Source: Capillimicrobium parvum
Lineage (GTDB): Bacteria > Actinomycetota > Thermoleophilia > Solirubrobacterales > Solirubrobacteraceae
Assembly (NCBI RefSeq): GCF_021172045.1
Contig: NZ_CP087164.1
Span: forward strand, 4,278,001-4,342,000
Direction: 5' to 3'
Length of the DNA stretch: 64,000 nucleotides
Positions 2,340 to 40,801 of this stretch are shown piece after piece. The position numbers and the translations under genes were made by a program. Every line of letters starts with the position of its first letter. Position 1 is the first letter of the stretch. The notes beneath the pieces are model-generated. The model did no database searches and had not been told where the DNA came from. It saw only the letters and a program-made list of their open reading frames with translations.

Positions 2340-2368
2340 GCGAGAAACGCCGGGTCCCAGCCGTTGCT
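2340..2368 (+). promoter_or_regulatory. EPS-type promoter motif (GCGAG-N17-CGTTGCT)
   Basis: GCGAG at 2340-2344, a 17-bp spacer and CGTTGCT at 2362-2368, seven bases before the ATG of the flippase gene at 2376. It matches the motif found at ten other places in this locus and implies a nearly leaderless transcript. It starts at the very end of the preceding oxidoreductase gene, so the flippase may have its own promoter besides read-through. Confidence 0.6.
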
Positions 2369-7671: not shown

Positions 7672-7736
7672 GTCGTCCGAGGAACGGCCGTCCGCGGCCG
7701 CAACTTTCGTCGGCGGCGATATGCGGGCGTGCCCGG

Positions 7737-9000: not shown

Positions 9001-9004
9001 GCGC

Positions 9005-9033
9005 GCAAGACCGGCGGGCGCGCGCGCGTTCAT
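9005..9033 (+). promoter_or_regulatory. EPS-type promoter motif (GCAAG-N17-CGTTCAT)
   Basis: GCAAG at 9005-9009, a 17-bp spacer and CGTTCAT at 9027-9033. Five bases later a GTG (9039) opens an 8-codon mini-ORF that overlaps the start of the giant surface protein gene. Confidence 0.65.
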
Positions 9034-9038
9034 CCAGC

Positions 9039-9065
9039 GTGACCCCCGGATGCGCGCTGCCATGA
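9039..9065 (+). CDS. Candidate leaderless 8-codon leader ORF
   Basis: GTG at 9039 sits 5 bp after the -10-like element and opens a frame of eight codons (M-T-P-G-C-A-L-P) that stops at TGA 9063-9065, overlapping the ATG 9062 of the surface protein gene. The same geometry, with GTG 23 bp before the downstream ATG, occurs at 23057-23083. It probably couples translation on a transcript that has no Shine-Dalgarno site. This is inferred from layout only. Confidence 0.4.
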   Translation: MTPGCALP

Positions 9066-12000
9066 CCGTCCATCGCCCCGCATGGATCGGACTGGCTGTG
9101 CTGGGCGCGATTCTCGCATGCGTGCTGAGCCGGCCACCGGTCGCCGCCGCCGTGACGTGCCCGGCCGCCAACCCGGTGGTCAACGAGAACAACTGCAAGG
9201 GGACGGGATCGACCGGCTGGCGGCTGACGAACTACGACAACAACGGGGTCGCCGGCTTTGCGGCGCAGCCGAGCGTGAACGTCGGCAGCCCGGTCACCCT
9301 CGACATCGGCGCCTTCGACACGAACAACGACCGCGTCGACATCTCCGTCTATCGCATCGGCTACTACGGCGGGACCGGCGGCCGGCTCGTGCACACCGCC
9401 ACGAACGTCGCGGTCAACAACCCCTACGGGTGCGGTTCGCCGGACTCGACCACCGGGCTCGTGGCCTGCGACGGCTGGGCTCCGACCTACACGATCCCCG
9501 CCTCGGCGCTGACCACGTCGGGGGTCTACATCGCGCGCCTGCGCGCCACGGAGAGCGGCAACGAGAACGCCGTCCTGTTCGTCGTCCGCGACGACGGCCG
9601 CCAGGCCGACGTCCTCTACAAGCTGCCCACGGCGACCTACCAGGCGTACAACAACTGGGGCGGCAAGTCGATGTACGACTGGAACTCGTTCGGCTCGACC
9701 ACCGTCACCGGAGGACCCCGCGCCGCCAAGGTCTCGTTCCTGCGCCCCCTCGCCGACCTGCGCGTCGGCGACAACTGGTTCCAGAAGTCCGACTACGCGA
9801 TGGTGTTCTGGCTCGAGAAGCAGGGCTACGACGTCTCCTACACCGAGGACGTCTCGGTCAGCCAGCAGCCGTCGCAGCTCCTGGGCCACCGCGTCGACAT
9901 GGTCGCCGGGCACGACGAGTACTGGACCGGCGAGGAGATGCACGGCTACAAGGCGGCCCGCGACGCGGGCGTCTCGGTGGCCTCGTTCAGCGGCAACACG
10001 GCGTACTGGAAGACCCGCCTCGAGGACGGCGGCGACACGCTCGTCACCTACAAGACCGTGCAGGGCTCGGGCACGAACGGCGCCGCCGGTCAGAACGACT
10101 GGGGCCCGGACGGGGTCAAGAACACCGCCGACGACGCGCTGGGCCTCGACCGGATCGCCGGCACGGCCGACGACCGGCCGCAGAACGCCACGACGACCTG
10201 GCGCGACAACGGCGCGCCATCTGGCTCGCCCGACGCGCCGGCCGGCGGACGCGTCGGACCCGACGAACCCGAGAACTCGCTGTTCGGCAACATGTACGTC
10301 GGCGACAACGACTCGGTCAGCTACCCGCTCGGCGTCCCCGCCGGCAACGCCCAGAACTGGTACGCGGCCGACCGCATCTGGCGGCACACGGGCATCACGG
10401 CCGCGACCGGCGGCTCGATCGGCTCGAAGCTCGTCGGCTGGGAGTGGGACGCCATCCCGACCAACCCGCAGTACCTGGCCAAGCAGCCGGCCGGCGTCGT
10501 CCCGGTCACCGCCAGCGACACGACGAACCTCGGCTCGGAGTGGCTGATGGACGAGGGCCGCGTCTACGGGTCCTCCCCGCCGGCCGGGCAGCCCGGCACG
10601 CCGGAGGCGGTCAAGTACCGGGCGGCAAGCGGCGCATGGGTGTTCTCGGCCGGCACGAACCAGTGGAGCTGGGGCCTCGGCCCGCACTGGATCGACCAGC
10701 CCGGCAGCGGCCAGTCCTTCCAGGATCCGCCCACCGACTCGACGGACGCCCGCATCTCGCAGGCGACGTACAACATGCTCTCGGACATGAACGTGCAGCC
10801 CATCACCCCGGTGGGCCTCACGCTCGACTCCGGCAACCAGCCGCCGTCCGCATCGTTCACCGTCTCGCCGAACCCGGCGCTGACCGGGCAGACCGTGACG
10901 TTCGACGCCTCGGCGTCCACCGACACGGACGGCACGATCGCGCAGTACGAGTGGGACCTCGACGGCAACGGGACATACGAGAAGACGACGACCACGCCGA
11001 CGACCACCACGACGTACAGCACCGCCGGACCGGTGACCGCCGGCCTGCGGGTGACCGACAACGGCGGCGCGTCGACCACCACCAGCCGGAGCGTGAGCGT
11101 CTCCAGCGGCGAGCTCGGCCCGTACCCGCAGGCCGTCGTCGCCGGCGGCGCGAGCGACTACTGGCGGCTCGGGGACGTCGGCACCACGACCCTGATCGAC
11201 CAGCTCGGCGGCGCGAACGCCACGGCGCGCAACGGCGTGACCCTCGGCGTCCCCGGCGCCCTGAGCGGCGACAGCGACACGGCCGCGCGATTCGACGGCG
11301 TCAACGACGCGGCCACCGCCCCGGTCAACCTGTCGGCCACGAGCAAGCTGACCGTCGAGTTCTGGCTGAAGTGGAGCGCGTACGCCAACGACGACCGCCT
11401 GGCGATGGAGCTCACGGCGAACTTCAACCAGAACGCGGGCGGCTTCCTCGTCGACCCCAACTCGCCGCAGAACGGCGGGACGTTCGGCGTGGCGCTGGGC
11501 ATCGGCACGTCGCGCAACAACGTCTACTTCGCGCGGCCGAGCGCCGGGGCATGGCACCACTACGCGTTCGTGATGGACACGACGGCCCCGGCCGCGACCC
11601 AGATCACGCCCTACGTCGACGGCGTGGCCGTCCCCTACGCGAAGGTCGACAGCGGCACGGGCGCCGGTGCGTTCGCGAACGCGACGCTGAACATGATGTC
11701 GCGCAACGCCGCGAGCCTGTTCGGCGCCGGCGACCTCGATGAGGTCGCGCTCTACCCGACGACGCTGAGCGCCGGGACGATCGCCGGCCACTTCACGAAG
11801 GGTGGAGGGACGCTGGTCAACCAGGTGCCGACGGCGTCGTTCACCGTCTCGTCCAACCCGGTCGCGACCGGCCAGCCGGTCTCGTTCGACGCGACCGGCT
11901 CGGCCGATCCCGACGGCACCATCGCCCGGTACGAGTGGGACCTCGACGGCAACGGGACGTATGAGACCGACACGGGCACCACCCCGACGACCACCAACAT

Positions 12001-15000
12001 CTACTCCAGCGCCGCGACGGTGAACGTCGGGCTGCGGGTCACCGACAACGGCGGGGCCACCGCGACGACCACGCGGACGCTGACCGTCCAGGGGCCGGCC
12101 AACCAGCCTCCCGCGGCGTCGTTCACGATCGCGCCCAACCCGGCGACGGCGGGCCAGCAGGTCCTGTTCGACGCCGGTGCCTCCGCCGACCCCGACGGCA
12201 CCATCGCCAAGTACGAGTGGGACCTCGACGGCAACGGCACCTACGAGACCGACACCGGCACCACCGCCACCACCACCCACACGTACGCCGCCGCGGGCCC
12301 GGTCGCGGTCGGCCTGCGCGTCACCGACAACGCCGGCGCCACGGGGACCACCTCCCGCACCCTCACCGTCAACCCGCAGCAGCAGACCAGCCCGTATCCG
12401 CAGGCGATCCTGGCGACGACGGGCCTGTCCGGCTACTGGCGCCTGGGCGAGGCGTCGGGCACGACGCTGGCCAACCAGCTCGGCTCGCCGAGCCTGACCG
12501 CCCAGGGCGGCGTCACGCTCGGCGTCCCCGGTGCGATCACCGGCGATGCGAACACCGCTGCGCGCTTCGACGGCGTCAACGACGCGGCCACCGCCCCGGT
12601 CAACCTGTCGGCCACCAACAAGGTCACCGTCGAGTTCTGGCTGAAGTGGACCGCCTACGCCAACGACGACCGCCTCGCCATGGAGCTCACCCCGAACTTC
12701 AACACCAACGCCGGCGGGTTCATCGTCGACCCCAACGACGCCAGCGGCCGCTTCGCCGTGGGCATCGGCCGCTCGGGCAGCACGCGCAACAACGTCCTGT
12801 TCACCCGCCCCAGCGCCGGCACCTGGCACCACTACGCGTTCGTCATGGACTCCAGCGCTGCCGCGGCCACCCAGATCACGCCCTACGTCGACGGCCAGGC
12901 CGTCACCTACACCAAGCTCAACAGCGGCACCGGCGCCGGCAACTTCGCCAACGCCACGCTCAACGTCATGAGCCGCAACGCCGCCAGCCTGTTCGGCACC
13001 GGCGACCTCGACGAACTGGCCATCTACTCGACCACGCTCACGTCGGCGACGGTCGCCGCGCACTACAGCACCGGCCACAACGGCGGCGCCAACCAGGCAC
13101 CCACCGCATCGTTCACCGCGTCGCCGAACCCGGCCACCACGGGCCAGCAGGTGACCTTCGACGCAAGCGCCTCCAGCGACTCCGACGGCACCATCAGCCA
13201 GTACGAGTGGGACCTCAACGGCGACGGCACCTACGAGACCACGACCACCGCGCCGACGACCACGCGCACGTACACGAGCGCGGCGACGGTCACGGTGGGG
13301 CTGCGCGTGACCGACAACGGCGCGGCGACCGCCACGACGACGCGCACGCTGACCGTCCAGACGCCGGCCAACCAGCCGCCCACCGCGTCCTTCACCGCCA
13401 CGCCCAACCCGGCCACCACCGGACAGACGGTGACGTTCGACGCCTCCGCCTCCGCCGACTCGGACGGCTCGATCGCGCTCTACGAGTGGGACCTGGACGG
13501 CAACGGCACCTACGAGACGTCGACGACCACGCCGACGACGACGCGCTCCTACGCGAGCGCCGCGTCGATCACCGTCGGCCTGCGCGTCACCGACAACAGC
13601 GCGGCCAACGCCACGACGACGCGGACGCTGACCGTCCAGTCGCCCGCCAACCAGCCGCCCACCGCCTCCTTCACCGCCACGCCCAACCCGGCGACCACCG
13701 GCCAGACCGTGACGTTCGACGCCTCCGCCTCCAGCGACCCCGACGGCTCGATCGCGCTCTACGAGTGGGACCTCGACGGCAACGGCACCTACGAGACGTC
13801 GACGACCACCCCGACGACCACCCGCTCCTACGCAAGCGCCGCGTCGATCACAGTCGGCCTGCGCGTCACCGACAACAGCGCCGCGACCGCGACGACCACG
13901 CGGACGCTGACCGTCCAGTCGGTGACCGGCCAGCCGCCCACCGCGTCCTTCACCGCCACGCCCAACCCGGCCACCACCGGCCAGACCGTCGCGTTCGACG
14001 CCGGCGCCTCCAGCGACCCCGACGGCACCATCGCCAAGTATGAGTGGGATCTCGACGGCAACGGGACCTACGAGACCGACACCGGCACCACCGCCAACAC
14101 CACCCGCTCCTACACGAGCGCCGGATCGGTCACCGTCGGCCTGCGCGTCACCGACAACAGCGCGGCGACCGCCACGACCACGCGGACGCTCACGGTCCAG
14201 CTGCCGGCCAACCAGCCGCCCACCGCCTCCTTCACCGCCAGCCCCAACCCGGCCACCACCGGCCAGACCGTCGCGTTCGACGCCGGCGCCTCCAGCGACC
14301 CCGACGGCACCATCGCCAAGTACGAGTGGGATCTCGACGGCAACGGGACCTACGAGACCGACACCGGCACCACCGCCACCACCACCCGCTCCTACACGAG
14401 CGCCGGATCGGTCACCGTCGGCCTGCGCGTCACCGACAACAGCGCCGCGACCGCCACGACCACGCGGACGCTGACCGTGACGAGCAGCCAGCCGTCCAGC
14501 CCCTACGCGCAGACGGTCCTCGCGACGACCGGGCTCACCGGCTACTGGCGCATGGGCGAGGCGTCGGGCACGACGCTGGCCAACCAGCTCGGCTCGCCGA
14601 GCCTGACGGCCCAGGGCGGCGTCACGCTCGGCGTCCCCGGTGCGATCACCGGCGATGCGAACACCGCTGCGCGCTTCGACGGCGTCAACGACGCGGCCAC
14701 CGCCCCGGTCAACCTGTCGGCCACCAACAAGGTCACCGTCGAGTTCTGGCTGAAGTGGACCGCCTATGCCAACGACGACCGCCTGGCGATGGAGCTCACC
14801 CCGAACTTCAACTCCAACAGCGGCGGGTTCATCGTCGACCCCAACGACGCCAGCGGCCGCTTCGCCGTCGGCATCGGCCGGCCCGGCGGCACGCGCAACA
14901 ACGTGCTGTTCACCCGGCCCAGCGCCGGCACCTGGCACCACTACGCGTTCGTCATGGACTCCAGCGCTGCCGCGGCCACGCAGATCACGCCCTACGTCGA

Positions 15001-16600
15001 CGGCCAGGCCGTCAGCTACACCAAGCTCAACAGCGGCACCGGCGCCGGCAACTTCGCCAACGCCACGCTCAACGTCATGAGCCGCAACGCCGGCAGCCTG
15101 TTCGGCACCGGCGACCTCGACGAGCTCGCCATCTACTCGACCCCGCTGAGCGCCGCGACGATCGGCGGCCACTACGCCGCCGGGGCCAACCAGCCCCCGA
15201 GCGCGTCGTTCACGGCCACGCCCAACCCCGCCGACACCGGCCAGCAGGTCACGGTCAACGCAGGCGCGTCCAGCGACCCCGACGGCACCATCGCCAAGTA
15301 CGAATGGGACCTCGACGGCAACGGCACCTACGAGACCGACACCGCCACCACCGCCACGACGACCCGCACCTACGCGAGCGCCGGCTCGGTGACCGTCGGG
15401 CTGCGGGTGACCGACGACCGCGGGGCCACGGCCACGACGACGCGCACGCTGACCGTGCACGCCGCCAACCAGCGGCCGACGGCGTCGTTCACCGCCACGC
15501 CCAACCCCGCGACGACCGGCCAGCAGGTCGCGTTCGACGCCGGCACCTCCGCCGACCCCGACGGCACCATCGCCAAGTACGAGTGGGATCTCGACGGCAA
15601 CGGGACCTACGAGACCGACACCGGCACCACCGCCGCCGCCACCCACACCTACGCCACCGCCGGCGACGTCACGATCGGGCTGCGCGTGACCGACAACGCC
15701 GGCGCGACGGACACCACGACGCGCACGCTCACGGTCCAGGGCCCGGCGCCGGCGCCGGCGCTGCCCTCCAACCAGCCGCCCACCGCCTCCTTCATCGCCA
15801 CCCCGAACCCGGCGCAGACGGGCAGCGCGGTGATCTTCGACGCCACCGGATCCGGCGATCCCGACGGCGCCATCGCCACGTACGAGTGGGACCTCGACGG
15901 CAACGGGACCTACGAGACCGACACGGGTGCCGTCGCGACCGCGAGCCACGCCTATGACACGGCCGGCGCCGTGACCGTGGGGCTGCGCGTCACCGACAAC
16001 GGCGGCGCCACCGCGACGCAGACCGTCGCGCTGACGGTCGAGGCAGCGCCTGCCCCGGCGCAGGCGCAGGCCCCGGCGCAGGCCCCGGCGCAGGAGCAGG
16101 CCCCCGCGCAGGAGCAGGCCCCGGCGCAGGAGCAGGCCCCGGCGCAGGAGCAGGCCCCGGCGCAGGAGCAGGCCCCGGCGCAGGAGCAGGCGCCTGCGCC
16201 GCTTGCGGCCGAGCAGCCCCTGTCCTCGCCGCTGCTGACCCTGACGGCCCCGGGCGCCGACGGCGCGCACGCGGGCACCGTGCGGCTGGCGGGCGAGCGA
16301 CGGGCCCAGGTCGAGTCCGGGCGGACGGTGACGGGTTCCGTCGTCGCCGCCGGGGCCGCGCCCGGCACCTCGGCGCTGGTCCGCATCGAGCGGCCGCGCT
16401 GCACCTCGCATGGCTGCCGCTGGGTCGCCGTGCGCACGTTCACCGTCCCGCTCGACGCCGCTGGACGCGGCCAGATGCGCGTCGTGCTGCGCCGGCCCGG
16501 CGTGGTGCGCGCCTGGGCCCAGGACGCGAGCGCACCGCCGGGCGAGGCGCCGCCCGACGAACGCTACGCGTACGTCGTCGTGCGCCGGCCGCCACGATGA
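9062..16600 (+). CDS. Giant secreted protein: dimethylformamidase-like domain, 11 PKD and 3 LamG domains
   Basis: A 2512-residue protein with an N-terminal Sec signal (hydrophobic WIGLAVLGAILACVL, Ala-rich cleavage region). Residues of about 35-580 resemble the large-subunit C-terminal domain of N,N-dimethylformamidase (YRIGYYGGTGGR, QAYNNWGGKSMYDWNS, GHDEYWT). Then follow PKD1, LamG1, PKD2-3, LamG2, PKD4-8, LamG3 and PKD9-11. PKD copies start with [NG]QxPxASFTxxPNP and contain YEWDLDGNGTYE. An Ala-Pro-Gln-Glu linker and a beta-rich tail close the protein; there is no LPXTG or final membrane helix. It is likely exported and glycan- or matrix-binding. ATG 9062 is preferred over ATG 9050 because it overlaps the mini-ORF stop. 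The 3' end overlaps the FTR1-like gene by 4 bp. Confidence 0.85.
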   Translation: MTVHRPAWIGLAVLGAILACVLSRPPVAAAVTCPAANPVVNENNCKGTGSTGWRLTNYDNNGVAGFAAQPSVNVGSPVTLDIGAFDTNNDRVDISVYRIGYYGGTGGRLVHTATNVAVNNPYGCGSPDSTTGLVACDGWAPTYTIPASALTTSGVYIARLRATESGNENAVLFVVRDDGRQADVLYKLPTATYQAYNNWGGKSMYDWNSFGSTTVTGGPRAAKVSFLRPLADLRVGDNWFQKSDYAMVFWLEKQGYDVSYTEDVSVSQQPSQLLGHRVDMVAGHDEYWTGEEMHGYKAARDAGVSVASFSGNTAYWKTRLEDGGDTLVTYKTVQGSGTNGAAGQNDWGPDGVKNTADDALGLDRIAGTADDRPQNATTTWRDNGAPSGSPDAPAGGRVGPDEPENSLFGNMYVGDNDSVSYPLGVPAGNAQNWYAADRIWRHTGITAATGGSIGSKLVGWEWDAIPTNPQYLAKQPAGVVPVTASDTTNLGSEWLMDEGRVYGSSPPAGQPGTPEAVKYRAASGAWVFSAGTNQWSWGLGPHWIDQPGSGQSFQDPPTDSTDARISQATYNMLSDMNVQPITPVGLTLDSGNQPPSASFTVSPNPALTGQTVTFDASASTDTDGTIAQYEWDLDGNGTYEKTTTTPTTTTTYSTAGPVTAGLRVTDNGGASTTTSRSVSVSSGELGPYPQAVVAGGASDYWRLGDVGTTTLIDQLGGANATARNGVTLGVPGALSGDSDTAARFDGVNDAATAPVNLSATSKLTVEFWLKWSAYANDDRLAMELTANFNQNAGGFLVDPNSPQNGGTFGVALGIGTSRNNVYFARPSAGAWHHYAFVMDTTAPAATQITPYVDGVAVPYAKVDSGTGAGAFANATLNMMSRNAASLFGAGDLDEVALYPTTLSAGTIAGHFTKGGGTLVNQVPTASFTVSSNPVATGQPVSFDATGSADPDGTIARYEWDLDGNGTYETDTGTTPTTTNIYSSAATVNVGLRVTDNGGATATTTRTLTVQGPANQPPAASFTIAPNPATAGQQVLFDAGASADPDGTIAKYEWDLDGNGTYETDTGTTATTTHTYAAAGPVAVGLRVTDNAGATGTTSRTLTVNPQQQTSPYPQAILATTGLSGYWRLGEASGTTLANQLGSPSLTAQGGVTLGVPGAITGDANTAARFDGVNDAATAPVNLSATNKVTVEFWLKWTAYANDDRLAMELTPNFNTNAGGFIVDPNDASGRFAVGIGRSGSTRNNVLFTRPSAGTWHHYAFVMDSSAAAATQITPYVDGQAVTYTKLNSGTGAGNFANATLNVMSRNAASLFGTGDLDELAIYSTTLTSATVAAHYSTGHNGGANQAPTASFTASPNPATTGQQVTFDASASSDSDGTISQYEWDLNGDGTYETTTTAPTTTRTYTSAATVTVGLRVTDNGAATATTTRTLTVQTPANQPPTASFTATPNPATTGQTVTFDASASADSDGSIALYEWDLDGNGTYETSTTTPTTTRSYASAASITVGLRVTDNSAANATTTRTLTVQSPANQPPTASFTATPNPATTGQTVTFDASASSDPDGSIALYEWDLDGNGTYETSTTTPTTTRSYASAASITVGLRVTDNSAATATTTRTLTVQSVTGQPPTASFTATPNPATTGQTVAFDAGASSDPDGTIAKYEWDLDGNGTYETDTGTTANTTRSYTSAGSVTVGLRVTDNSAATATTTRTLTVQLPANQPPTASFTASPNPATTGQTVAFDAGASSDPDGTIAKYEWDLDGNGTYETDTGTTATTTRSYTSAGSVTVGLRVTDNSAATATTTRTLTVTSSQPSSPYAQTVLATTGLTGYWRMGEASGTTLANQLGSPSLTAQGGVTLGVPGAITGDANTAARFDGVNDAATAPVNLSATNKVTVEFWLKWTAYANDDRLAMELTPNFNSNSGGFIVDPNDASGRFAVGIGRPGGTRNNVLFTRPSAGTWHHYAFVMDSSAAAATQITPYVDGQAVSYTKLNSGTGAGNFANATLNVMSRNAGSLFGTGDLDELAIYSTPLSAATIGGHYAAGANQPPSASFTATPNPADTGQQVTVNAGASSDPDGTIAKYEWDLDGNGTYETDTATTATTTRTYASAGSVTVGLRVTDDRGATATTTRTLTVHAANQRPTASFTATPNPATTGQQVAFDAGTSADPDGTIAKYEWDLDGNGTYETDTGTTAAATHTYATAGDVTIGLRVTDNAGATDTTTRTLTVQGPAPAPALPSNQPPTASFIATPNPAQTGSAVIFDATGSGDPDGAIATYEWDLDGNGTYETDTGAVATASHAYDTAGAVTVGLRVTDNGGATATQTVALTVEAAPAPAQAQAPAQAPAQEQAPAQEQAPAQEQAPAQEQAPAQEQAPAQEQAPAPLAAEQPLSSPLLTLTAPGADGAHAGTVRLAGERRAQVESGRTVTGSVVAAGAAPGTSALVRIERPRCTSHGCRWVAVRTFTVPLDAAGRGQMRVVLRRPGVVRAWAQDASAPPGEAPPDERYAYVVVRRPPR
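12411..13040 (+). repeat. LamG-domain repeat, copy A (inside the giant surface gene)
   Basis: This segment, encoding LamG2, is nearly identical at DNA level to 14520-15149 (LamG3), offset 2109 bp, with long runs of unbroken identity including synonymous sites. LamG1 (about 11130-11790) is clearly more diverged. The pattern indicates recent duplication or gene conversion between copies A and B. Confidence 0.8.
13090..14480 (+). repeat. Five consecutive PKD-coding repeats of about 280 bp
   Basis: Five tandem PKD units (starting near 13090, 13369, 13650, 13926 and 14209) share most of their DNA sequence, including the segments for YEWDLDGNGTYE and VGLRVTDN. Six further units lie at about 10840, 11818, 12100, 15187, 15466 and 15769. 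The block is prone to copy-number change and to assembly collapse. Confidence 0.85.
14520..15149 (+). repeat. LamG-domain repeat, copy B (inside the giant surface gene)
   Basis: Second member of the near-identical pair with 12411-13040. Differences are few, for example in the segment just before the invariant TRNNVLFTRPSAGTWHHYAF coding region. Confidence 0.8.
16051..16198 (+). repeat. 18-bp tandem repeat coding for an Ala-Pro-Ala-Gln-Glu-Gln linker
   Basis: About seven units of GCGCAGGAGCAGGCCCCG, preceded by shorter degenerate units, encode (APAQEQ)n between the last PKD domain and the C-terminal domain. This is a flexible, probably length-variable stalk in an exported protein. Confidence 0.85.
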
Positions 16601-19380
16601 GCGTGCGGCATCTGGCCCTCGCTCTCGTCGCGGTGATCGCCACGGGAGGACTGACCGCCTGCGCGAGCACCGAGGCAGGCGGCGCTCACGGCACGGCGGC
16701 GGCGACGACGGCCTACGAGCCGCCGCCCACCCTCTCGCCCGCCGCGACCCGCACGATGTCCGACGGCCTGGGCCGGCTCGCCGCCCGGCTGGCGACCGCC
16801 GCGCAGTCCGCCGGCGGACCCGGGTTCGACGCGGCGATCGGGCGCAGCCGCACGGAACTGGCCGCCGTCCTCGCCGTCGCCCGCGCACAGCAGGGCCGCG
16901 CGGCCGCGCACCCCGCGCTGCTCGTCGCCGGCCTGGGGCGGCTGCGGCAGGTGGTCGACCTCGCCGCGAGCGGCGGGCCGGCGCCGCCCGCGACGCGGAC
17001 CATGGCCGTGGCCGATGCCCAGCGGATCGCGGCGGATCTGCGCGCCCGCGTCGACCGCCGGGAGCCCGGCCTCGCGGCGAGCGGGCCGCAGGCGACCGCT
17101 CCGCCCGCCCCCGGGCCCTACCTCGCGGCCACGGCGCTGTCCACCGACCTGCTGCGGGCGCGCTGGGAGACCGCCGCCCGCAGCCCCGGCCGCGCGAGCG
17201 CCGCCGTGGCCGACGCGCGCCGGCAGGCGGCAGGCTTGACCCCCGCGATCCCGGGCCTGAGGCGCGAGCTGCGGCGCGCCGCCCAGGCGGCCCGGGCGGG
17301 CGATGACGTCACGCTCGCGAGCGCCCGCGGCGCCGCGCTGGCTACCATCGCGCGAGCGGGCCAACTCCGTGCCGAGCGCGCCGCCGCGGCCGGCGACGGG
17401 CGCGGCGCCGAGCGGTGGGCGACGCTGCGCGATCTCGGCCCGACGACGACGGCGCGTCGCGTCCGCGACGACGCCGCGCGGGCGGCCGCTGCCCTGCGCG
17501 ACGGCCGGATGCGGCCCGCCGCAGCGGCGCTCGCGGTGCGCCGCGACGGCCTCGACGCCCTCCAGCGCCGGACCACCGTACTCGTCCAGCAGGCGGCGCT
17601 CGCCGCGTACGGCGGCCGGGGAGCCGATCGCGCCGAGGCAGCCGCCACGGCGGCCGGATACTGGGCCCTGCTGGCGCCCGAGTATGCGCGCCGTTCCGGC
17701 CCGGCCGCCGCGGTCCGGGCCGGCCGCGCGTTCGCGGCGCTGGCGGTGCCGGTGCCTCCGGGGCTCGGGCCGGGATTCGCGCTCGACGCCAAGGTCGCGG
17801 CGGCGGGGGCCGCCCTCGGCGCCTTCACCGCCGCGCCGCCCACCGCCGCCGAACGCGCGAGCCGCATCCGCCGCCTCGTCCGCCTCACCGCCCAGACCAC
17901 GTCGCAGCTGTGTGACCGCAACGCGCCGGCCCGTCGCCCGGGCGGCGACGCCGGCGAGGGCGCCGTCGGGCCGGCCGCCATCGCGCGGCTGATCGCCGAC
18001 GTCCGGCCCGGCCTCCCGGCGGCCGACAGCGCGCGCCTCGCCGCGATCCTGCCCGACCTCGCCGCGCTCCCGCGCACCGCCGGCATCCTCGGTGAGGAGG
18101 GCGCCCCGCCGCCCACCGCCGTCCCGCCCGCGGCCGGCGCCATGTGCGATCGCGTCCGGGCCGCGGTCCAGGACGTGTTCCCCGACGCCTGGCGGCGCCT
18201 CGACGGCGACGAGGACATCGACCGCATCGAGGCCCAGCTGGCCCGCATGGAGCGCGCGGCGGCCGCGGGGCGCTGGGGCGAGGCCGACCAGGCGCGGCGC
18301 ACCGCGTACGCGATCTTCGAGCTCGGGCCCGAGCCGCGGCTGCGCGCCTTCGCGCCCGACCTCGTCGTCCGTCTCGAGAACCTCTTCTGGGCCGCCGCGC
18401 CCGACGGCCCGAACCTCGCCGACGTCCTGGCCGAGGGCACGCCGCCCGCCGTCGTACGCGAGCGGCGCCTGGCGACCGTCGCCGCGCTCGAGCAGGCGCG
18501 GGCCGCGCTGGACCGCCCGCGCAGCGGCGGCGCCGTCGTCGTCAACAGCGCGATCGTCGTGTTCCGCGAGGGCCTCGAGGCCGCGCTCGTCCTCGCCGCC
18601 CTCATCGCCAGCTTCGCCGTCGGCGGCCGCGCCTGGCGCCGGCCGCTGGTGGCCGGGATGCTGGCCGCCGTCCCGGCGACCGTGGTGACCTGGTTCCTCA
18701 CCTCGGCCGCCGTACGGTCGCTCTCGGGCTGGGGGCTCGCGCTCGAGGCGGCCGTCGACCTGGCGGCGCTCGTCGTGCTCGCCGTCATCCTCGCGTGGTT
18801 CTTCCAGCGCTTCTGCTGGACGCGGTTCGTGGTGCGCCAGCAGGCGCGCCACCGCCGGCTGCTGGCCCCCGGCTCGGGCGTCTGGCCGGCGGTCGCGCTC
18901 GGCCTGCTCGGCTTCACGGCGATCTACCGCGAGGGCTTCGAGACCGTCGTCTACCTGCAGGCGCTGCGGCTCGACGCGGGCACCGGCACGGTGCTGCAGG
19001 GCGTCGCGCTCGGCCTGGCGCTGACGGCGGCCTTGGCGCTGCTCATGCTGCGCCTGCGCCGGCGGCTGCCCTACCGGGCCATCGTGGTCGCCGCCGCGAG
19101 CGGCATCGCGCTGCTGACCGTGATCCTCGCCGGTCAGGCGGCCCGTGCGGCCCAGGCCGCCGGCTGGATCGCCGTCGACCCGGTCCACCTCCGCCTGCCG
19201 GCCTGGACCGGGCCGTGGCTCGGCCTGTACCCGAGCACCCAGACGCTGGTCGCCCAGGTGCTGGCCGTCGTCGGGATCGTGATCCTCGGCCTCGTGGTGC
19301 GGGGGCGGCGCGAGCAGCGCTCCGCGCGGCGGATGCAGGCGGCCCGCGCGCGCCGGGCCCGGCCCAAGACGACCGCCTGA
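16597..19380 (+). CDS. FTR1-family permease with a large N-terminal lipoprotein-like domain
   Basis: A 927-residue protein. The N-terminus has a signal with a lipobox-like LTAC (about residues 20-23). An Ala-rich, mostly helical extracytoplasmic region runs to about residue 640. The last ~280 residues form about seven membrane helices carrying the FTR1 signature twice: REGLEAALV and, 120 residues later, REGFETVVYLQ. FTR1 proteins carry the REXXE motif for ferric iron transport with a partner oxidase or EfeO-like protein; here the extracytoplasmic part may replace the partner. ATG 16597 overlaps the surface protein stop (ATGA). No efeO/efeB gene is nearby. The 3' end is duplicated in tandem. 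Confidence 0.8.
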   Translation: MSVRHLALALVAVIATGGLTACASTEAGGAHGTAAATTAYEPPPTLSPAATRTMSDGLGRLAARLATAAQSAGGPGFDAAIGRSRTELAAVLAVARAQQGRAAAHPALLVAGLGRLRQVVDLAASGGPAPPATRTMAVADAQRIAADLRARVDRREPGLAASGPQATAPPAPGPYLAATALSTDLLRARWETAARSPGRASAAVADARRQAAGLTPAIPGLRRELRRAAQAARAGDDVTLASARGAALATIARAGQLRAERAAAAGDGRGAERWATLRDLGPTTTARRVRDDAARAAAALRDGRMRPAAAALAVRRDGLDALQRRTTVLVQQAALAAYGGRGADRAEAAATAAGYWALLAPEYARRSGPAAAVRAGRAFAALAVPVPPGLGPGFALDAKVAAAGAALGAFTAAPPTAAERASRIRRLVRLTAQTTSQLCDRNAPARRPGGDAGEGAVGPAAIARLIADVRPGLPAADSARLAAILPDLAALPRTAGILGEEGAPPPTAVPPAAGAMCDRVRAAVQDVFPDAWRRLDGDEDIDRIEAQLARMERAAAAGRWGEADQARRTAYAIFELGPEPRLRAFAPDLVVRLENLFWAAAPDGPNLADVLAEGTPPAVVRERRLATVAALEQARAALDRPRSGGAVVVNSAIVVFREGLEAALVLAALIASFAVGGRAWRRPLVAGMLAAVPATVVTWFLTSAAVRSLSGWGLALEAAVDLAALVVLAVILAWFFQRFCWTRFVVRQQARHRRLLAPGSGVWPAVALGLLGFTAIYREGFETVVYLQALRLDAGTGTVLQGVALGLALTAALALLMLRLRRRLPYRAIVVAAASGIALLTVILAGQAARAAQAAGWIAVDPVHLRLPAWTGPWLGLYPSTQTLVAQVLAVVGIVILGLVVRGRREQRSARRMQAARARRARPKTTA

Positions 19381-19485
19381 GCGGTCGCCGCGGGCGCGGC
19401 GCGAGCAGCGCTCCGCGCGGCGGATGCAGGCGGCCGCGCGCGCCGGGCCCGGCCCAAGACGACCGCCTGAGCGGTCGCCGCGGGC
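19305..19485 (+). repeat. Tandem duplication of the 3' end of the FTR1-like gene
   Basis: Copy 1 (19305-19395) covers the last ~24 codons, the stop and 15 bp beyond; copy 2 (19396-19485) repeats it with a single C missing in one run, so its frame is broken. Copy 2 fills most of the gap before the convergent methyltransferase gene. Confidence 0.9.
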
Positions 19486-19492
19486 GCGGGCG

Positions 19493-20296
19493 CTACCGGA
19501 TCGCGACCGCGTGCAGGTACGCGGCGTAGACGGGGTCCCGGCCCAGCAGACGCCATGCCATGCGGCGGCCGACGCGGCGGGCGAACGACCGCACCAGCGG
19601 CAGATCCAGGCCCCGGCCGGTGAACGCGGCGGAGGCGTCGGCCGCGCGGAACTGCCCGATGAACGGCGTGTGGCCGTACACGTGGCACTCCGCGTAGTCG
19701 GCGAAGGCCTCGCGCAGCGCGCTCACGGACTGGTAGTTGATGTGCGTCTTGTCCGGGTCCGTGAACCCGGGCGTGAAGACGTTCCAGAACGCGTTGTCGA
19801 GGTAGTTCGGCGTCGCGAAGAAAGCCAGGCCGCCGGGGCGCAGCACGCGGTGCACCTCCTCGACGCAGCGGGCGGCGAGGTCCGGATCGAGATGCTCGAT
19901 GACGTCGATCGCCGTGACGAGGTCGAAGCGCGCGTCGGGGAACGGCAGCTCGCTGACGGACCCGACCTGCAGCGTGGCGACGCCGCGCGCGCGGCCGCGG
20001 GCGACGGCGTAGTCGGAGATGTCGATGCCGTGCGCGTCCCAGCCGTCGGCGGCCAGCCGCTCGACGTAGAAGCCCATCGCACAGCCGACGTCGAGGCTCG
20101 AGGGGGTCCGGCCCGCCGGCCGGGCGGCCGCCGCGTACTGGCGGATCGACGGCATGAACGCCTCGTCGATGGCCGCCTCGGCCTCGCGCTCGTAGTCCTG
20201 GTAGTTGCTCTTCGTGCCGCCGGTGAAGTACGCCTCGTCGAACACCGTCGTGCCTGCGGCCATGTGCGTCGCCTCCCGCTGCGGGTCGTGATCCAT
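19493..20296 (-). CDS. Class I SAM-dependent methyltransferase
   Basis: A 267-residue methyltransferase of the UbiE/Methyltransf_11 type. Motif I is DVGCAMGFYVERLAADG, followed by the acidic residue that binds the ribose (GIDIS). Motif II/III is FDLVTAIDVIEHLDP and LRPGGLAFFATPN is post-motif III. It probably methylates a glycan or a lipid-linked sugar, given the cluster. ATG 20296 lies exactly 5 bp after a CGTTGGT element, suggesting leaderless expression. An internal ATG (20263) has a GGGAGG ribosome site 9 bp upstream and could be a second or the true start. Confidence 0.8.
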   Translation of the reverse strand: MDHDPQREATHMAAGTTVFDEAYFTGGTKSNYQDYEREAEAAIDEAFMPSIRQYAAAARPAGRTPSSLDVGCAMGFYVERLAADGWDAHGIDISDYAVARGRARGVATLQVGSVSELPFPDARFDLVTAIDVIEHLDPDLAARCVEEVHRVLRPGGLAFFATPNYLDNAFWNVFTPGFTDPDKTHINYQSVSALREAFADYAECHVYGHTPFIGQFRAADASAAFTGRGLDLPLVRSFARRVGRRMAWRLLGRDPVYAAYLHAVAIR

Positions 20297-20301
20297 ACCC
20301 G

Positions 20302-20329
20302 ACCAACGGCCCGGGCGGCGCGTTCTTCT
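20302..20329 (-). promoter_or_regulatory. Variant EPS-type promoter motif (AGAAG-N16-CGTTGGT)
   Basis: On the minus strand AGAAG (20329-20325), a 16-bp spacer and CGTTGGT (20308-20302), with 5 bp to ATG 20296. It is the weakest of the set (spacer one base short, -35 half imperfect), but the distance to the start codon is the same as at the best sites. The -35 half overlaps the end of the upstream flippase gene. Confidence 0.45.
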
Positions 20330-21869
20330 ATCGCGAGGGCGCGGGCGCCGCGGGGACGAGCGGGGCGCGCGACGCGTCCGGCGGCGGCCGTCGCAGGAGG
20401 CTGCGCACGAGCAGCTCCAGATCCGACCAGGCGGCAGGGAACAGCGTGCGCAGCGCGACCAGGTACACCGCGGCGCAGGCCAGCGACACGACGACGACGA
20501 ACGGCAGCGCCGGCAGCGTGCCGGTGAGCGTCCGGGCCAGCGGCCAGCCCACGACCACCAGCGCCAGCGAGCAGAGACCCGCCGGCGCCACGTCGCGCGC
20601 CAACTGGCGCAGCGGGACGCCCACCATCGGCCCGAGCATGACGGCGTATGCGGCGCACAGCGCCACGACCTGGAAGCCGCTCACCGCCGCCGCGACCGCG
20701 GTCAGACCCGCGAAGGACGCCGCCCACACGGTCCCCGCGTACGCCACGGCCTCGACGACGCAGAAGCCCAGCAGCGCCCGCGGATGGCCGGCGGCGAGGA
20801 TGAGCGGGCTCGTGCCGTTGCGCAGCGTGGAGGCCATGCCGGCGACCGCCAGGAACTGGGCCGGCACGACGGCGGGCTCCCAGCGCGCGCCGAAGATCCA
20901 GGGCACGGCGACCGGCGCGATGACGATGAAGCAGGCCAGCAGAGGCCAGACGAGGGTCGCGTTGAGGCGCACGATGCGCAGCCGCAGGCTGCGCAGGTGG
21001 TCGAGGTCCTCGGTGCGCGAGTACAGCGGGAACGTGACGCGGGCGAGCACCCCGGTGAGCTTGGCCTCGTACTCGACGCCGAGCGTGTAGGCCCGGTAGT
21101 AGTAGCCGGCCATCAGCGGCCCGAGGCGCCCGCCGATGACGATGTAGTCGACGTTGCGGTACCCGATCCCGGCCAGCCCGGCCGCGGCGGCGGGGACGCC
21201 GAAGCGCCGGATCTCGCGGGCCTCGCGCCGGTGCCAGCGGGGCAGCGTGCGCGGGACGCTGGCCTGATAGCCCACCGCGAGCACCGCGAGGCCGGTGAGC
21301 ATGCCGAGCACGTACGCCTTCGCCTCGAGGCCGGCGAACGCGAGGCCGAGCGACACCGCCGCGCTGGCCAGCACGCCGCACACCTCGATGGTGCCGATCC
21401 GCCGGAAGCGCAGCTCGCGCTGCAGCTGCGCCAGCGGGACGATCATGATCGCCACGAGCAGGAAGGATGGCGAGAACAGGCGGAACAGCTGGGTCGTCTC
21501 GGCGCCGAACAGCGGCGTCGTCGCCAGCGGCACGACGAGCAGCGTGAAGAGCGACAGGGCCAGGCCCATGCCGAGGGCGAGCATGACGCCCGCTTCGAGA
21601 TGGGCGCGGCCGATGTCGCGGCGCTGCACGAGCGGGCTGCCGACGCCCTCGTTGGCGGTCATGAGCGCGAGCTCGCGCACGATCACCGCCACGGCCAGCA
21701 TGCCGAACTGACGCGGGGAGACGAGGTGCGCGAGCACGATCGACGAGCTCACCGTGAGCATCTCCGCGGCGAGCCGGGCGAGCGCCATCCAGCGCACGCC
21801 CTCGATCGCGGCGACCTTCAGCGTCGCCCGCGACAGGTTGTGGTGCTCAGGAGGCTGCGGCGCGGGCAA
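20328..21869 (-). CDS. Wzx-type oligosaccharide flippase
   Basis: A 513-residue polytopic protein with about 12-14 membrane segments. It has the polysaccharide-export pattern IVLAHLVSPRQFGMLAVAVIVREL near the N-terminus and GYRNVDYIVIGGRLGPLMAGYYYRAY in the middle, characteristic of the PST/Wzx branch of the MOP superfamily. There is no ATG near the expected N-terminus. TTG 21869 is chosen because GGAGG stands 6 bp upstream and it leaves the usual cytoplasmic lead-in before the first helix. It then overlaps the upstream glycosyltransferase gene by 23 bp, so the two are coupled. Confidence 0.8.
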   Translation of the reverse strand: MPAPQPPEHHNLSRATLKVAAIEGVRWMALARLAAEMLTVSSSIVLAHLVSPRQFGMLAVAVIVRELALMTANEGVGSPLVQRRDIGRAHLEAGVMLALGMGLALSLFTLLVVPLATTPLFGAETTQLFRLFSPSFLLVAIMIVPLAQLQRELRFRRIGTIEVCGVLASAAVSLGLAFAGLEAKAYVLGMLTGLAVLAVGYQASVPRTLPRWHRREAREIRRFGVPAAAAGLAGIGYRNVDYIVIGGRLGPLMAGYYYRAYTLGVEYEAKLTGVLARVTFPLYSRTEDLDHLRSLRLRIVRLNATLVWPLLACFIVIAPVAVPWIFGARWEPAVVPAQFLAVAGMASTLRNGTSPLILAAGHPRALLGFCVVEAVAYAGTVWAASFAGLTAVAAAVSGFQVVALCAAYAVMLGPMVGVPLRQLARDVAPAGLCSLALVVVGWPLARTLTGTLPALPFVVVVSLACAAVYLVALRTLFPAAWSDLELLVRSLLRRPPPDASRAPLVPAAPAPSR

Positions 21870-22980
21870 TCTCGGCCTCCAGTGCGCGCAGCGCGTCCGT
21901 GCGGTCGAAGCGCTTGGCGATGTCGATCCGGCCGCGTGCGGCCATCGCCCGCGCGCGCGCCGGATCGGCGACCAACTCGCCCACCCCGGCGGCGACCGCT
22001 GCCGGGTCGCCGGGCGCGACGAGGATGCCCGTCTCGCCGTCGCGGACGATGTCGGGCACCCCGCCGACGCGCGTGGCGACCACGGGCGTCTCGCGGGCCA
22101 GCGCCTCCATGATCGTGAGGCCGAGCGGCTCGCTGTGCGCGCAGGACAGCAGGATGTCGCTGCTCGCGAGCACGTCGCCGACCCGGTCGCTGACGCCGGC
22201 GAGCCGCACGCGATCGGCGACGCCCCGCGCCGCGGCTCGCTGCGCCAGCGCCGCCGCGCTCGTCTCCTGCTGGATCGGCCCGACGAGGTCGAGACGGACA
22301 TCGACGTCACGCTCTGTCAGCCGGGCGACCGCGTCGATCGCCACGTCCTGACCCTTGCGCCCGTCGCGGTTGACCGTCCCGACCAGGCAGAGGCGCAGCG
22401 GAGAGCCGAAGCCTTCACGCGGGGCGGGCACGGGCGGGATCGGGATCCCGTCCGAGATGCGCACGACCCGCGCGCCGCGTGCCCCGGCGAACGCCGACTC
22501 GACGGCGCTGGAGACGGCCACGACGGTGTCGGCGAACGCCCCGAGCAGACTGAACAGCAGCCGCGACCGGCGATCGGGCGGCAGCTCCCGGGCATAGACG
22601 ACGACGGGCACCCGCGCCAGCCAGGCACCGATGACCGGGCCGAGCAGCACCGTGCTGTTGGTGTGGACGACCCGGATGCGGTGCCGGCGGACGTAAAGGG
22701 CGATCCGCGGGGCATCGAGCACCGAGCGCGCGAGCTCGAGCAGCCAGCGCCGGCGGCTCCCCCACCCGAACGTCATCGTCGGGCTCGCCCGCATCGGCCG
22801 GCCGGCTGCGGCGAACCGCTCGTACAGCGGGCCGCGCCGCACGGCGATGTGCAGCTCGTGGCGGTCGGCCAGCCAGCCCGCGGCGTCGAGCGCCATGAGC
22901 TGGGCGCCGCCGACCCGGGCGCTGTGCACCGCGAGCAGGATCGGGGTGCGGCGCCGGTCCGCCGCGGAGCGTGGTCTCAC
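21847..22980 (-). CDS. Family 4 (GT-B fold) glycosyltransferase
   Basis: A 377-residue GT-B enzyme with the Glycos_transf_1 domain in the C-terminal half: the EX7E-type motif EPLGLTIMEALARE near residue 295, followed by the TPVVATRVGGVPDIVRDGETG block. The N-terminal half starts LLAVHSARVGGAQLMAL, the usual donor-side loop. The start is GTG 22980, exactly 5 bp after CGTTGAT on the minus strand, so it is probably translated from a leaderless transcript. It heads an operon with the Wzx gene, with the methyltransferase downstream on its own promoter. Confidence 0.85.
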   Translation of the reverse strand: MRPRSAADRRRTPILLAVHSARVGGAQLMALDAAGWLADRHELHIAVRRGPLYERFAAAGRPMRASPTMTFGWGSRRRWLLELARSVLDAPRIALYVRRHRIRVVHTNSTVLLGPVIGAWLARVPVVVYARELPPDRRSRLLFSLLGAFADTVVAVSSAVESAFAGARGARVVRISDGIPIPPVPAPREGFGSPLRLCLVGTVNRDGRKGQDVAIDAVARLTERDVDVRLDLVGPIQQETSAAALAQRAAARGVADRVRLAGVSDRVGDVLASSDILLSCAHSEPLGLTIMEALARETPVVATRVGGVPDIVRDGETGILVAPGDPAAVAAGVGELVADPARARAMAARGRIDIAKRFDRTDALRALEAEIARAAAS

Positions 22981-22985
22981 GCCCC

Positions 22986-23014
22986 ATCAACGGCAGTCCG
23001 CGGCGACGTCTTGC
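22986..23014 (-). promoter_or_regulatory. EPS-type promoter motif (GCAAG-N17-CGTTGAT), leftward
   Basis: Minus strand GCAAG at 23014-23010, a 17-bp spacer, CGTTGAT at 22992-22986, then 5 bp to the GTG at 22980. It is paired with a divergent copy at 23022-23050 in the same 99-bp gap. Confidence 0.7.
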
Positions 23015-23021
23015 GGGCGGC

Positions 23022-23050
23022 GCAAGCCCGGTCCCGCATCAGCCGTTGAT
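23022..23050 (+). promoter_or_regulatory. EPS-type promoter motif (GCAAG-N17-CGTTGAT), rightward
   Basis: GCAAG at 23022-23026, a 17-bp spacer and CGTTGAT at 23044-23050. The first start codon downstream is GTG 23057 (6 bp), which opens an 8-codon frame overlapping the glycosyltransferase ATG. Confidence 0.7.
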
Positions 23051-23056
23051 GCAGCA

Positions 23057-23083
23057 GTGTCCGGCACCGCTCCGAGCCGATGA
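23057..23083 (+). CDS. Candidate leaderless 8-codon leader ORF
   Basis: GTG 23057 plus seven codons (S-G-T-A-P-S-R) end at TGA 23081-23083, overlapping ATG 23080 of the next gene by ATGA. Length, overlap and the 23-bp offset are the same as for the mini-ORF at 9039-9065, while the encoded peptides are unrelated. This argues for a translation-coupling role, not a peptide function. Confidence 0.4.
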   Translation: MSGTAPSR

Positions 23084-23997
23084 CGGTCAAGGCGAGCGTC
23101 GACGCCGTCATCGTCAGCTACCGCAGCGCGCGCACGCTGCGCGAGAGCGTAGGTCCGCTCGCGGCGGTGCCGGGCGCGCACGTCGTCGTCGTCGACAACG
23201 CGTCCGACGACGACTCGCTCGCCACGATCGCCGACCTCGCCGTCGACGCGGTCCGCGCGCCGCGCAACGGCGGCTTCGCCTACGGCTGCAACCTCGGCAT
23301 CGCCCGCGGTGAGGCCCCGTACGTGCTCCTGCTCAACCCGGACGCGGTGCTCAGCGCCGCCGACCTCGACGTGCTCGTCGGCGTGCTCGAACGCGAGCCG
23401 CACGTCGGGCTCGTGGCCCCGCGCATCATGGACGCCGACGGTCATCTCGTCGCGAGCCGGCGGCGCTTCCCGGGCGTCGCGACGGCGTGGGGGCAGGCGC
23501 TGATGCTGCACCGGCTCATACCTCGCACTGACGAGCTGCTGCACGGCGGCGGCGACCTCGCGAGCGAGCCCGACTGGGTGTCGGGCTCCTGCATGCTCGT
23601 GCGCCGCGAGGTGCTCGAGCGCATCGGCGGCCTCGACGAGGGCTTCTTCCTCTACAGCGAGGACACGGACGTGTGCCGGCGGATCCGCGACGAGGGGCTG
23701 ACCATCCGGTATGAGCCGCGGGCGACCGCGACCCACGCAGGCGGAGCCTCCGCGCCGCGGCAGGATCTCCTCCCCGCGCTGGCCCGCAGCCGCGTGCGCT
23801 ATGCCCGGCTGCATGCGTCGCCGGCGTCCGCGGCGCTGCAGATCGCCGCGATCGCCGTCGGCGAGGCGACGCACGCGGTCGCAAGAGCGGGCCGCGGCTA
23901 CGCCCGCGGCCACCTCGCCGCGCTGCTCGCGGTCCTGCGCGCCGAGGACGCCGCGCGCGGGCTGGGGCCGCCGCGCACGGATCCGGGATGGCGCTGA
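23080..23997 (+). CDS. Family 2 glycosyltransferase (rhamnosyltransferase-like)
   Basis: A 305-residue GT-A enzyme. The N-terminal block AVIVSYRSARTLRESV leads to VVDNASDDDSL (nucleotide binding), the DXD-equivalent LLNPDAVL appears near residue 88, and the C-terminal acceptor-domain signature GGLDEGFFLYSEDTDVCRRIRD follows. These are hallmarks of WbbL/RfbF-like rhamnosyl and related transferases. ATG 23080 follows the mini-ORF described above. The gene overlaps the next one by 10 bp, so the two are co-translated. Confidence 0.85.
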   Translation: MTVKASVDAVIVSYRSARTLRESVGPLAAVPGAHVVVVDNASDDDSLATIADLAVDAVRAPRNGGFAYGCNLGIARGEAPYVLLLNPDAVLSAADLDVLVGVLEREPHVGLVAPRIMDADGHLVASRRRFPGVATAWGQALMLHRLIPRTDELLHGGGDLASEPDWVSGSCMLVRREVLERIGGLDEGFFLYSEDTDVCRRIRDEGLTIRYEPRATATHAGGASAPRQDLLPALARSRVRYARLHASPASAALQIAAIAVGEATHAVARAGRGYARGHLAALLAVLRAEDAARGLGPPRTDPGWR

Positions 23998-32614: not shown

Positions 32615-32643
32615 ATCAACGCGCTCCGAGGCCTGGCTCTTGC
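32615..32643 (-). promoter_or_regulatory. EPS-type promoter motif (GCAAG-N17-CGTTGAT), leftward
   Basis: Minus strand GCAAG (32643-32639), a 17-bp spacer, CGTTGAT (32621-32615), 9 bp to ATG 32605. It forms a divergent pair with 32647-32675. The spacers also share an inverted CTCCGAGG/CCTCGGAG block, so the whole 61-bp region is an imperfect palindrome. Confidence 0.65.
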
Positions 32644-32646
32644 AAC

Positions 32647-32675
32647 GCGAGGAACGCCCCCTCGGAGCCGTTGAT
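32647..32675 (+). promoter_or_regulatory. EPS-type promoter motif (GCGAG-N17-CGTTGAT), rightward
   Basis: GCGAG (32647-32651), a 17-bp spacer, CGTTGAT (32669-32675), then 6 bp to ATG 32682. It is the same -35 variant as the site at 2340. Confidence 0.65.
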
Positions 32676-36884: not shown

Positions 36885-37082
36885 TCAGCGACCCCGCCCG
36901 GATGAGACGAAGCCGCAAGGCACGGCGGCGGCGCCGAAGCGGCCGCCGTCGCGTGCGTCACGGCGGGTCGTGACGCCATCGACCGGGCGGCCGGCACCCG
37001 ACCGCGGGCGGCGGCGGCGATCGCGCACACCGCTCCGCTGATCTTCGGCGCCGTGCGCCACCAGGTCGATCCTTGCGTCCAT
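36885..37082 (-). CDS. Possible leaderless small ORF upstream of the oxidoreductase
   Basis: ATG 37082 lies 6 bp after the EPS-type -10 element and opens a 65-codon Arg-rich frame that ends 3 bp before the oxidoreductase GTG. No homologue is recognised, and the composition (many Arg, Gly, Asp) is what any GC-rich frame would give. It may be a leader ORF or simply an untranslated leader. Apart from this frame I see nothing in 36882-37163. Confidence 0.25.
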   Translation of the reverse strand: MDARIDLVAHGAEDQRSGVRDRRRRPRSGAGRPVDGVTTRRDARDGGRFGAAAVPCGFVSSGRGR

Positions 37083-37088
37083 CATCGG

Positions 37089-37117
37089 ATCAACGTCACC
37101 GGAGGCGCAGGGCTTGC
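37089..37117 (-). promoter_or_regulatory. EPS-type promoter motif (GCAAG-N17-CGTTGAT)
   Basis: Minus strand GCAAG (37117-37113), a 17-bp spacer, CGTTGAT (37095-37089). It is oriented toward the oxidoreductase gene, whose start is 207 bp away, and lies just downstream of the stop of the regulator gene at 37164-37889. Confidence 0.6.
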
Positions 37118-40772: not shown

Positions 40773-40801
40773 CTCAACGTCAGACGGCGACCCGCGCTTG
40801 C
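40773..40801 (-). promoter_or_regulatory. EPS-type promoter motif (GCAAG-N17-CGTTGAG)
   Basis: Minus strand GCAAG (40801-40797), a 17-bp spacer, CGTTGAG (40779-40773), 5 bp to ATG 40767. Its -35 half and spacer lie in the final codons of the aminotransferase gene. Confidence 0.65.

What the first reader, a model, noticed from the sequence alone, without database searches (positions are those of the whole stretch)
9039..23083. Two 8-codon leaderless mini-ORFs with identical geometry
At 9039-9065 and 23057-23083 a GTG 5-6 bp after the -10 motif opens exactly eight codons, whose TGA overlaps the ATG of the structural gene (23 bp offset in both). The peptides differ, but the spacing does not. These are the two motif-driven genes here with a longer leader and no Shine-Dalgarno site, so ribosomes could enter leaderless and reinitiate at the overlapped ATG.
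Basis: inference. Interest (0 to 1): 0.62.

Follow-up and report, generated by a model that had tools for sequence, protein, structure and literature searches.

The report
Tiny leaderless ORFs feeding sugar-coat genes
In a soil bacterium's polysaccharide gene cluster, two genes that share one kind of promoter each begin with an eight-codon mini-gene that probably loads ribosomes at the very start of the mRNA and passes them to the real gene, an arrangement already known from mycobacteria and now seen in a distant class of actinobacteria.

Summary
In detail: GTG, eight codons, then a TGA overlapping the ATG (ATGA), at 9039-9065 and 23057-23083. The "motif" is an ECF-type promoter (NNAAG-N17-CGTTSNT) in a cluster with an ECF sigma gene (41913-42533). 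In the window and in related Solirubrobacterales, most genes behind this promoter start 4-11 nt after the -10 box (43 of 75 sites), so they look leaderless. The two GTGs sit exactly there. Among the 32 sites whose gene starts later, 9 carry a start codon at +4..+11 opening a short ORF that ends at the gene start; shuffled leaders give 1.1 (P about 5e-7; without the window 7 versus 1.0, P about 3e-5). Criteria were partly post hoc, and a small held-out set (8 sites) had none. Two of five ortholog pairs that keep the promoter keep the mini-ORF while the peptide diverges; three do not. The two window loci cannot be tested: no ortholog with the promoter was found. Likeliest reading: leaderless ribosome entry plus termination-reinitiation, as described in mycobacteria. 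Eight codons is not a fixed rule (8-17 elsewhere). A new member of a known kind; transcript starts and translation remain unmeasured.

The parts
9005..9033 (+). ECF-type promoter GCAAG-N17-CGTTCAT upstream of mini-ORF 1
9039..9065 (+). mini-ORF 1: GTG + 7 codons + TGA (VTPGCALP), GTG 5 nt after the -10 element
9062..16600 (+). structural gene 1: 2512-aa secreted-type protein (DMFA2_C, PKD and Laminin_G_3 domains); alternative in-frame ATG at 9050
23022..23050 (+). ECF-type promoter GCAAG-N17-CGTTGAT upstream of mini-ORF 2
23057..23083 (+). mini-ORF 2: GTG + 7 codons + TGA (VSGTAPSR), GTG 6 nt after the -10 element
23080..23997 (+). structural gene 2: family 2 glycosyltransferase, 305 aa
8972..9000 (-). 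divergent partner promoter (GGAAG-N17-CGTTCGT) whose gene starts directly at ATG 8966 (+5)
22986..23014 (-). divergent partner promoter; GT4 gene starts directly at GTG 22980 (+5)
2340..2368 (+). ECF-type promoter; MurJ-like flippase gene starts at ATG 2376 (+7)
7680..7708 (-). ECF-type promoter; gene starts at ATG 7671 (+8)
31319..31347 (-). ECF-type promoter; AMP-binding enzyme gene starts at GTG 31313 (+5)
32615..32643 (-). ECF-type promoter; glycosyltransferase gene starts at ATG 32605 (+9)
32647..32675 (+). ECF-type promoter; asparagine-synthase-like gene starts at ATG 32682 (+6)
37089..37117 (-). ECF-type promoter followed by ATG at +3/+6 and a roughly 65-codon ORF
36885..37082 (-). possible third, longer uORF at the leaderless position; its stop is 3 nt before GTG 36881 of a MocA-type oxidoreductase gene
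40773..40801 (-). ECF-type promoter; sugar transferase (Bac_transf) gene starts at ATG 40767 (+5)
41913..42533 (-). ECF sigma factor, the presumed reader of these promoters

Best explanation
The two mini-ORFs are leaderless upstream ORFs that give ribosomes an entry point on mRNAs made from a cluster-specific ECF-sigma promoter. Transcription is inferred to start at or within a few nucleotides of the GTG, because most genes behind this promoter begin exactly there. A ribosome binds the 5'-terminal GTG, translates eight codons, terminates at TGA and reinitiates at the overlapping ATG of the structural gene, which has no Shine-Dalgarno site. The architecture matters and the peptide sequence does not. 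Shown here: the sequence geometry, the promoter family, the leaderless position of most of its genes, and the enrichment of short ORFs ending at the gene start. Inferred: the transcription start, that this sigma factor reads the promoters, translation of the mini-ORF, and reinitiation.
For: The promoter is real and local: GCAAG-N16-18-CGTTGAT occurs 5 times in 5.95 Mb, 4 of them in this cluster. The looser AAG-N17-CGTTSNT gives 33 hits against 5 for the reversed control. An ECF sigma gene lies in the cluster and its close orthologs are confined to Solirubrobacterales-type genomes. 43 of 75 sites with a downstream gene have the gene's start at +4..+11, and reversed sequence gives no sites at all. 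Of the 32 other sites, 9 have an ATG/GTG at +4..+11 whose ORF stops within -6..+10 of the gene start; 1.1 expected, P about 5e-7. Without the window: 7 against 1.0, P about 3e-5; start at +5/+6 with NTGA overlap: 2 against 0.1, P 0.003-0.008. The orthologous sulfotransferase genes of G149 and G147 both keep ATG at +6 and an NTGA overlap with 8 versus 9 codons and different peptides. The orthologous O-antigen-ligase genes of G105 and G107 both keep a start at +5 and 17 codons although ATG became GTG. In mycobacteria a 5'-terminal ATG/GTG is necessary and sufficient for leaderless initiation, and RTGA-coupled leaderless ORFs are over-represented (PMC4633059). Reinitiation at AUGA from a uORF 'landing pad' was shown for ppe2 (PMC11260477).
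Against: No transcription start or ribosome data exist for this organism. The enrichment criterion was partly fixed after seeing examples, and a held-out set of 8 non-direct sites had no coupled case (0.24 expected by chance, about 2 if the first rate held, so weak either way). In three ortholog pairs that keep the promoter the mini-ORF is not kept. The nine closest orthologs of the 23080 gene have no such promoter. Coupled genes do not have significantly weaker Shine-Dalgarno sites than the other non-direct genes (P 0.5).
Confidence: 0.6

Rival explanations
1. Ordinary short-leader genes: transcription starts near the GTG, but the GTG and the in-frame TGA are chance features of a GC-rich leader. 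The structural gene is translated from its own ATG without help.
For: ATGA is common at gene starts and GC-rich leaders rarely contain stops. Leaders without any start codon at +4..+11 also exist at this promoter (20 of 32 non-direct sites). Three ortholog pairs lose the mini-ORF, and the held-out sites show none.
Against: Start codons at +4..+11 occur in 12 of 32 non-direct leaders against about 4 expected, and their stops fall at the gene start in 9 against about 1. Two ortholog pairs keep the arrangement with diverged peptides.
Confidence: 0.25
2. The GTG is the true leaderless start of the structural gene, and a one-base frameshift (a sequencing error or a real mutation) separates it from the gene's frame.
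For: At site 1 the GTG is followed by a run of five C (9043-9047); one extra base there would put GTG in frame with the ATGs at 9050 and 9062. Most genes behind this promoter start directly at this position.
Against: Site 2, L170 and L169 have no such homopolymer, and the same arrangement recurs in independent assemblies. The 2512-aa frame downstream is intact, which argues against a high error rate.
Confidence: 0.08
3. A regulatory leader peptide or attenuator, in which the peptide's codons sense a metabolite and control the gene.
For: Leaderless cysteine-rich uORFs are proposed attenuators in mycobacteria (PMC4633059).
Against: VTPGCALP and VSGTAPSR share no codon theme, the peptides are not conserved where the architecture is, and the 23-nt leader leaves no room for a terminator or anti-terminator.
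Confidence: 0.05

Closest known systems
Leaderless 'coupled' small ORFs of mycobacteria (Shell et al. 2015, PMC4633059)
   Same: ATG/GTG expected at the mRNA 5' end, a short ORF in another frame, RTGA overlap with the gene start, and architecture kept while the peptide diverges
   Different: Here in Solirubrobacterales, tied to one ECF-sigma promoter class and a polysaccharide cluster; no transcript-start or ribosome data
uPPE2-PPE2 AUGA termination-reinitiation in M. tuberculosis (PMC11260477)
   Same: An SD-less gene whose ATG overlaps the stop of an out-of-frame uORF proposed as a ribosome landing pad
   Different: uPPE2 lies behind a riboswitch and is entered through a Shine-Dalgarno site; here the entry is inferred to be leaderless
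5'-terminal uAUG uORFs of E. coli (PMC4965119)
   Same: Start codon at the mRNA 5' end upstream of a gene, affecting the downstream gene in some cases
   Different: The E. coli genes have Shine-Dalgarno sites of their own; the two window genes do not
ATGA/TGATG-overlapping gene pairs (Huber et al. 2019, PMC6728339)
   Same: The same two overlap types are seen here (ATGA in the window and L170, TGATG in L109)
   Different: Those are pairs of full genes, not eight-codon entry ORFs

Membership tests
Leaderless coupled small ORF (Shell et al. 2015) | ATG or GTG at the very 5' end of the transcript | tested here: inconclusive
   Position matches that of 43 directly started genes behind the same promoter; no transcript 5' ends available
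Leaderless coupled small ORF (Shell et al. 2015) | ORF of 5-50 codons in a frame other than the gene's | tested here: met
   Eight codons, offset 23
Leaderless coupled small ORF (Shell et al. 2015) | Stop and start overlap as RTGA | tested here: met
   ATGA at 9062 and 23080; for gene 1 only if the start is 9062, not 9050
Leaderless coupled small ORF (Shell et al. 2015) | Architecture kept between orthologs more than peptide sequence | tested here: inconclusive
   Kept in 2 of 5 ortholog pairs with retained promoter; not testable at the two window loci
Leaderless coupled small ORF (Shell et al. 2015) | 70S ribosome occupancy | not testable with these tools
   Needs ribosome profiling
ECF sigma-70 factor (for the gene at 41913-42533) | Sigma70 regions 2 and 4 only | tested here: met
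   PF04542, PF08281; TIGR02937 89 bits, above its cut-off 42.9
BldN-family ECF sigma (TIGR02952) | Score above the curated cut-off | tested here: not met
   85.4 bits against a cut-off of 206
Attenuating leader peptide | Regulatory codon run and an alternative terminator before the gene | tested here: not met
   No codon theme in VTPGCALP/VSGTAPSR; the mini-ORF overlaps the gene start, leaving no room for a terminator

The most novel reading that the evidence does not exclude
One ECF sigma regulon is translated almost wholly by leaderless initiation, and where a gene cannot start at the transcript's first codon, selection installs a short (8-17 codon) leaderless entry ORF whose stop touches the gene start: a regulon-wide, SD-independent ribosome-loading rule.
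Probability: 0.25. Interest if true: 0.55.

Novelty: new member of a known kind. Interest (0 to 1): 0.4.

Why it matters
It extends leaderless, RTGA-coupled entry ORFs from mycobacteria to another class of Actinomycetota and ties them to one sigma factor's promoters. That makes the idea testable as a set: the same promoter drives directly leaderless genes and genes with entry ORFs in one cluster. Gene finders miss ORFs this short, and start sites in such clusters may be mis-annotated.

Tried and rejected
Strict motif search in 20 relatives: hits scattered and close to the control, so not used as regulon evidence. Orthologs of the 23080 glycosyltransferase: nine clear ones (51-59% identity), none with the promoter, so no direct conservation test. 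Orthologs of the 9062 protein: only distant matches (33-39%). Genome-wide pattern for start at +4..+9 with ATGA in 146 genomes: mostly unrelated chance matches, with the window pair and G149 as the only coupled hits recognised inside ECF clusters. Weaker Shine-Dalgarno sites as a signature of coupled genes: not significant. Held-out test on about 0.76 Mb of new sequence: 16 sites, 8 non-direct, none coupled; too small to decide. Literature searches for a leaderless/ECF link in Thermoleophilia found nothing specific.

Full report
OBSERVATION. Both mini-ORFs are exactly as described: 9039-9065 (VTPGCALP*) and 23057-23083 (VSGTAPSR*), each GTG plus seven codons plus a TGA that shares bases with the ATG at 9062 or 23080. 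The GTG lies 5 or 6 nt after the motif's 7-base -10 element. Only 6 of 3206 ATG/GTG triplets in the window open eight codons ending in ATGA. Two cautions: gene 1 has another in-frame ATG at 9050, and site 1 contains a run of five C where an indel would change the frame.

WHAT THE MOTIF IS. A scan with fixed spacing shows NNAAG-N17-CGTTSNT, always with 17 nt between the halves. In the whole 5.95-Mb genome the strict form occurs five times, four of them in this cluster. The loose form occurs 33 times against 5 for the reversed control. The shape (AAG-type -35, CGTT-type -10, 16-18 nt apart) is that of an ECF sigma promoter (own knowledge of the family), and an ECF sigma gene lies in the cluster at 41913-42533. 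Its close orthologs (about 50-60% identical) are found in Solirubrobacterales-type genomes only. That this sigma factor reads these promoters is inferred from position and co-occurrence. Many of the genes behind the promoters belong to polysaccharide synthesis: glycosyltransferases, sugar transferase and flippase, with asparagine-synthase-like and AMP-binding enzymes among them.

MOST OF ITS GENES ARE LEADERLESS. Across the window and about 1.6 Mb around ECF orthologs and related clusters, 75 sites have a coding gene downstream, and the reversed sequence has none. In 43 the gene's start codon is at +4..+11, most often +5 or +6. With transcription starting there, these mRNAs begin with the start codon. 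In the window the directly started genes are those at 2376, 7671, 8966, 22980, 31313, 32605, 32682 and 40767.

THE MINI-ORFS SIT AT THE SAME POSITION. In 32 sites the gene starts later. Nine of these have an ATG/GTG at +4..+11 whose ORF ends between -6 and +10 of the gene start; shuffling the leaders gives 1.1 on average (P about 5e-7). The nine lengths are 8, 8, 8, 8, 8, 9, 10, 10 and 17 codons; junctions are ATGA, GTGA, TGATG, a one-base gap, and three longer overlaps. Two longer candidates fall outside the automatic count: 28 codons in L092 and about 65 codons at 37082-36885 in the window. I set the criterion after seeing some of the cases, so the P values are optimistic. A test with the criterion frozen on new sequence had only 8 non-direct sites and no coupled one; this neither confirms nor refutes.

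CONSERVATION. The two window loci cannot be tested: the nine orthologs of the 23080 gene have no such promoter, and the 9062 gene has no close ortholog. Elsewhere, with the promoter retained in both genomes: G149/G147 (sulfotransferase next to the ECF gene) keep ATG at +6 and NTGA with 8 versus 9 codons and peptides MTDAYRRS versus MTAEHRIHP; G105/G107 (O-antigen ligase) keep a start at +5 and 17 codons although ATG became GTG, with a weaker match to the promoter (GCAAA-N17-CGTTTGA) in G107. Three pairs do not keep it: L093/L096, L171/L259 (both with a Shine-Dalgarno site) and L109/L102. In a third species of the G147/G149 genus (G148) the promoter itself is missing.

MECHANISM. Most likely ribosomes bind the 5'-terminal GTG, read eight codons, stop at TGA and reinitiate at the overlapping ATG, which has no Shine-Dalgarno site (-3.3 and -1.7 kcal/mol). 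In mycobacteria a terminal ATG/GTG suffices for leaderless initiation, and RTGA-coupled leaderless ORFs are over-represented and sometimes keep their architecture rather than their peptide (PMC4633059). AUGA reinitiation from an upstream ORF is shown for ppe2 (PMC11260477), and strict coupling at ATGA/TGATG pairs is shown in 13 of 14 tested pairs (PMC6728339). Across all non-direct genes, coupled ones do not have weaker Shine-Dalgarno sites, so the need for an entry ORF is not proven.

NOVELTY. The arrangement is a new member of a known kind. What is added is its tie to one ECF promoter class and its occurrence in Solirubrobacterales.

Noticed in passing
8972-9033, 22986-23050, 32615-32675: Three divergent pairs of the same ECF promoter lie back to back with their -35 elements only 3-7 bp apart; both mini-ORF genes are the plus-strand members of such pairs.
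   Followed up: partly
36885-37117 (-): A third motif-driven gene (MocA-type oxidoreductase, GTG 36881) has a leader of about 200 nt filled by an ORF of about 65 codons that starts at the leaderless position and stops 3 nt before the gene.
   Followed up: partly
41913-42533 (-): ECF sigma of a family confined to Solirubrobacterales-type genomes, ending in a conserved GLHHRGR segment; the two adjacent genes checked on its 3' side encode a DegT-type aminotransferase and a sugar transferase, so no anti-sigma factor was seen there, though other neighbours include response regulators.
   Followed up: partly
L331 (own genome 1408255-1408303): Another site with the strong motif in the same genome: ATG at +5, four codons, ATGA; no coding gene was recognised at that ATGA.
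   Followed up: partly
9062-16600: A 2512-aa secreted-type protein with a DMFA2_C domain, 11 PKD-domain stretches and laminin-G-like domains inside the polysaccharide cluster.
   Followed up: no
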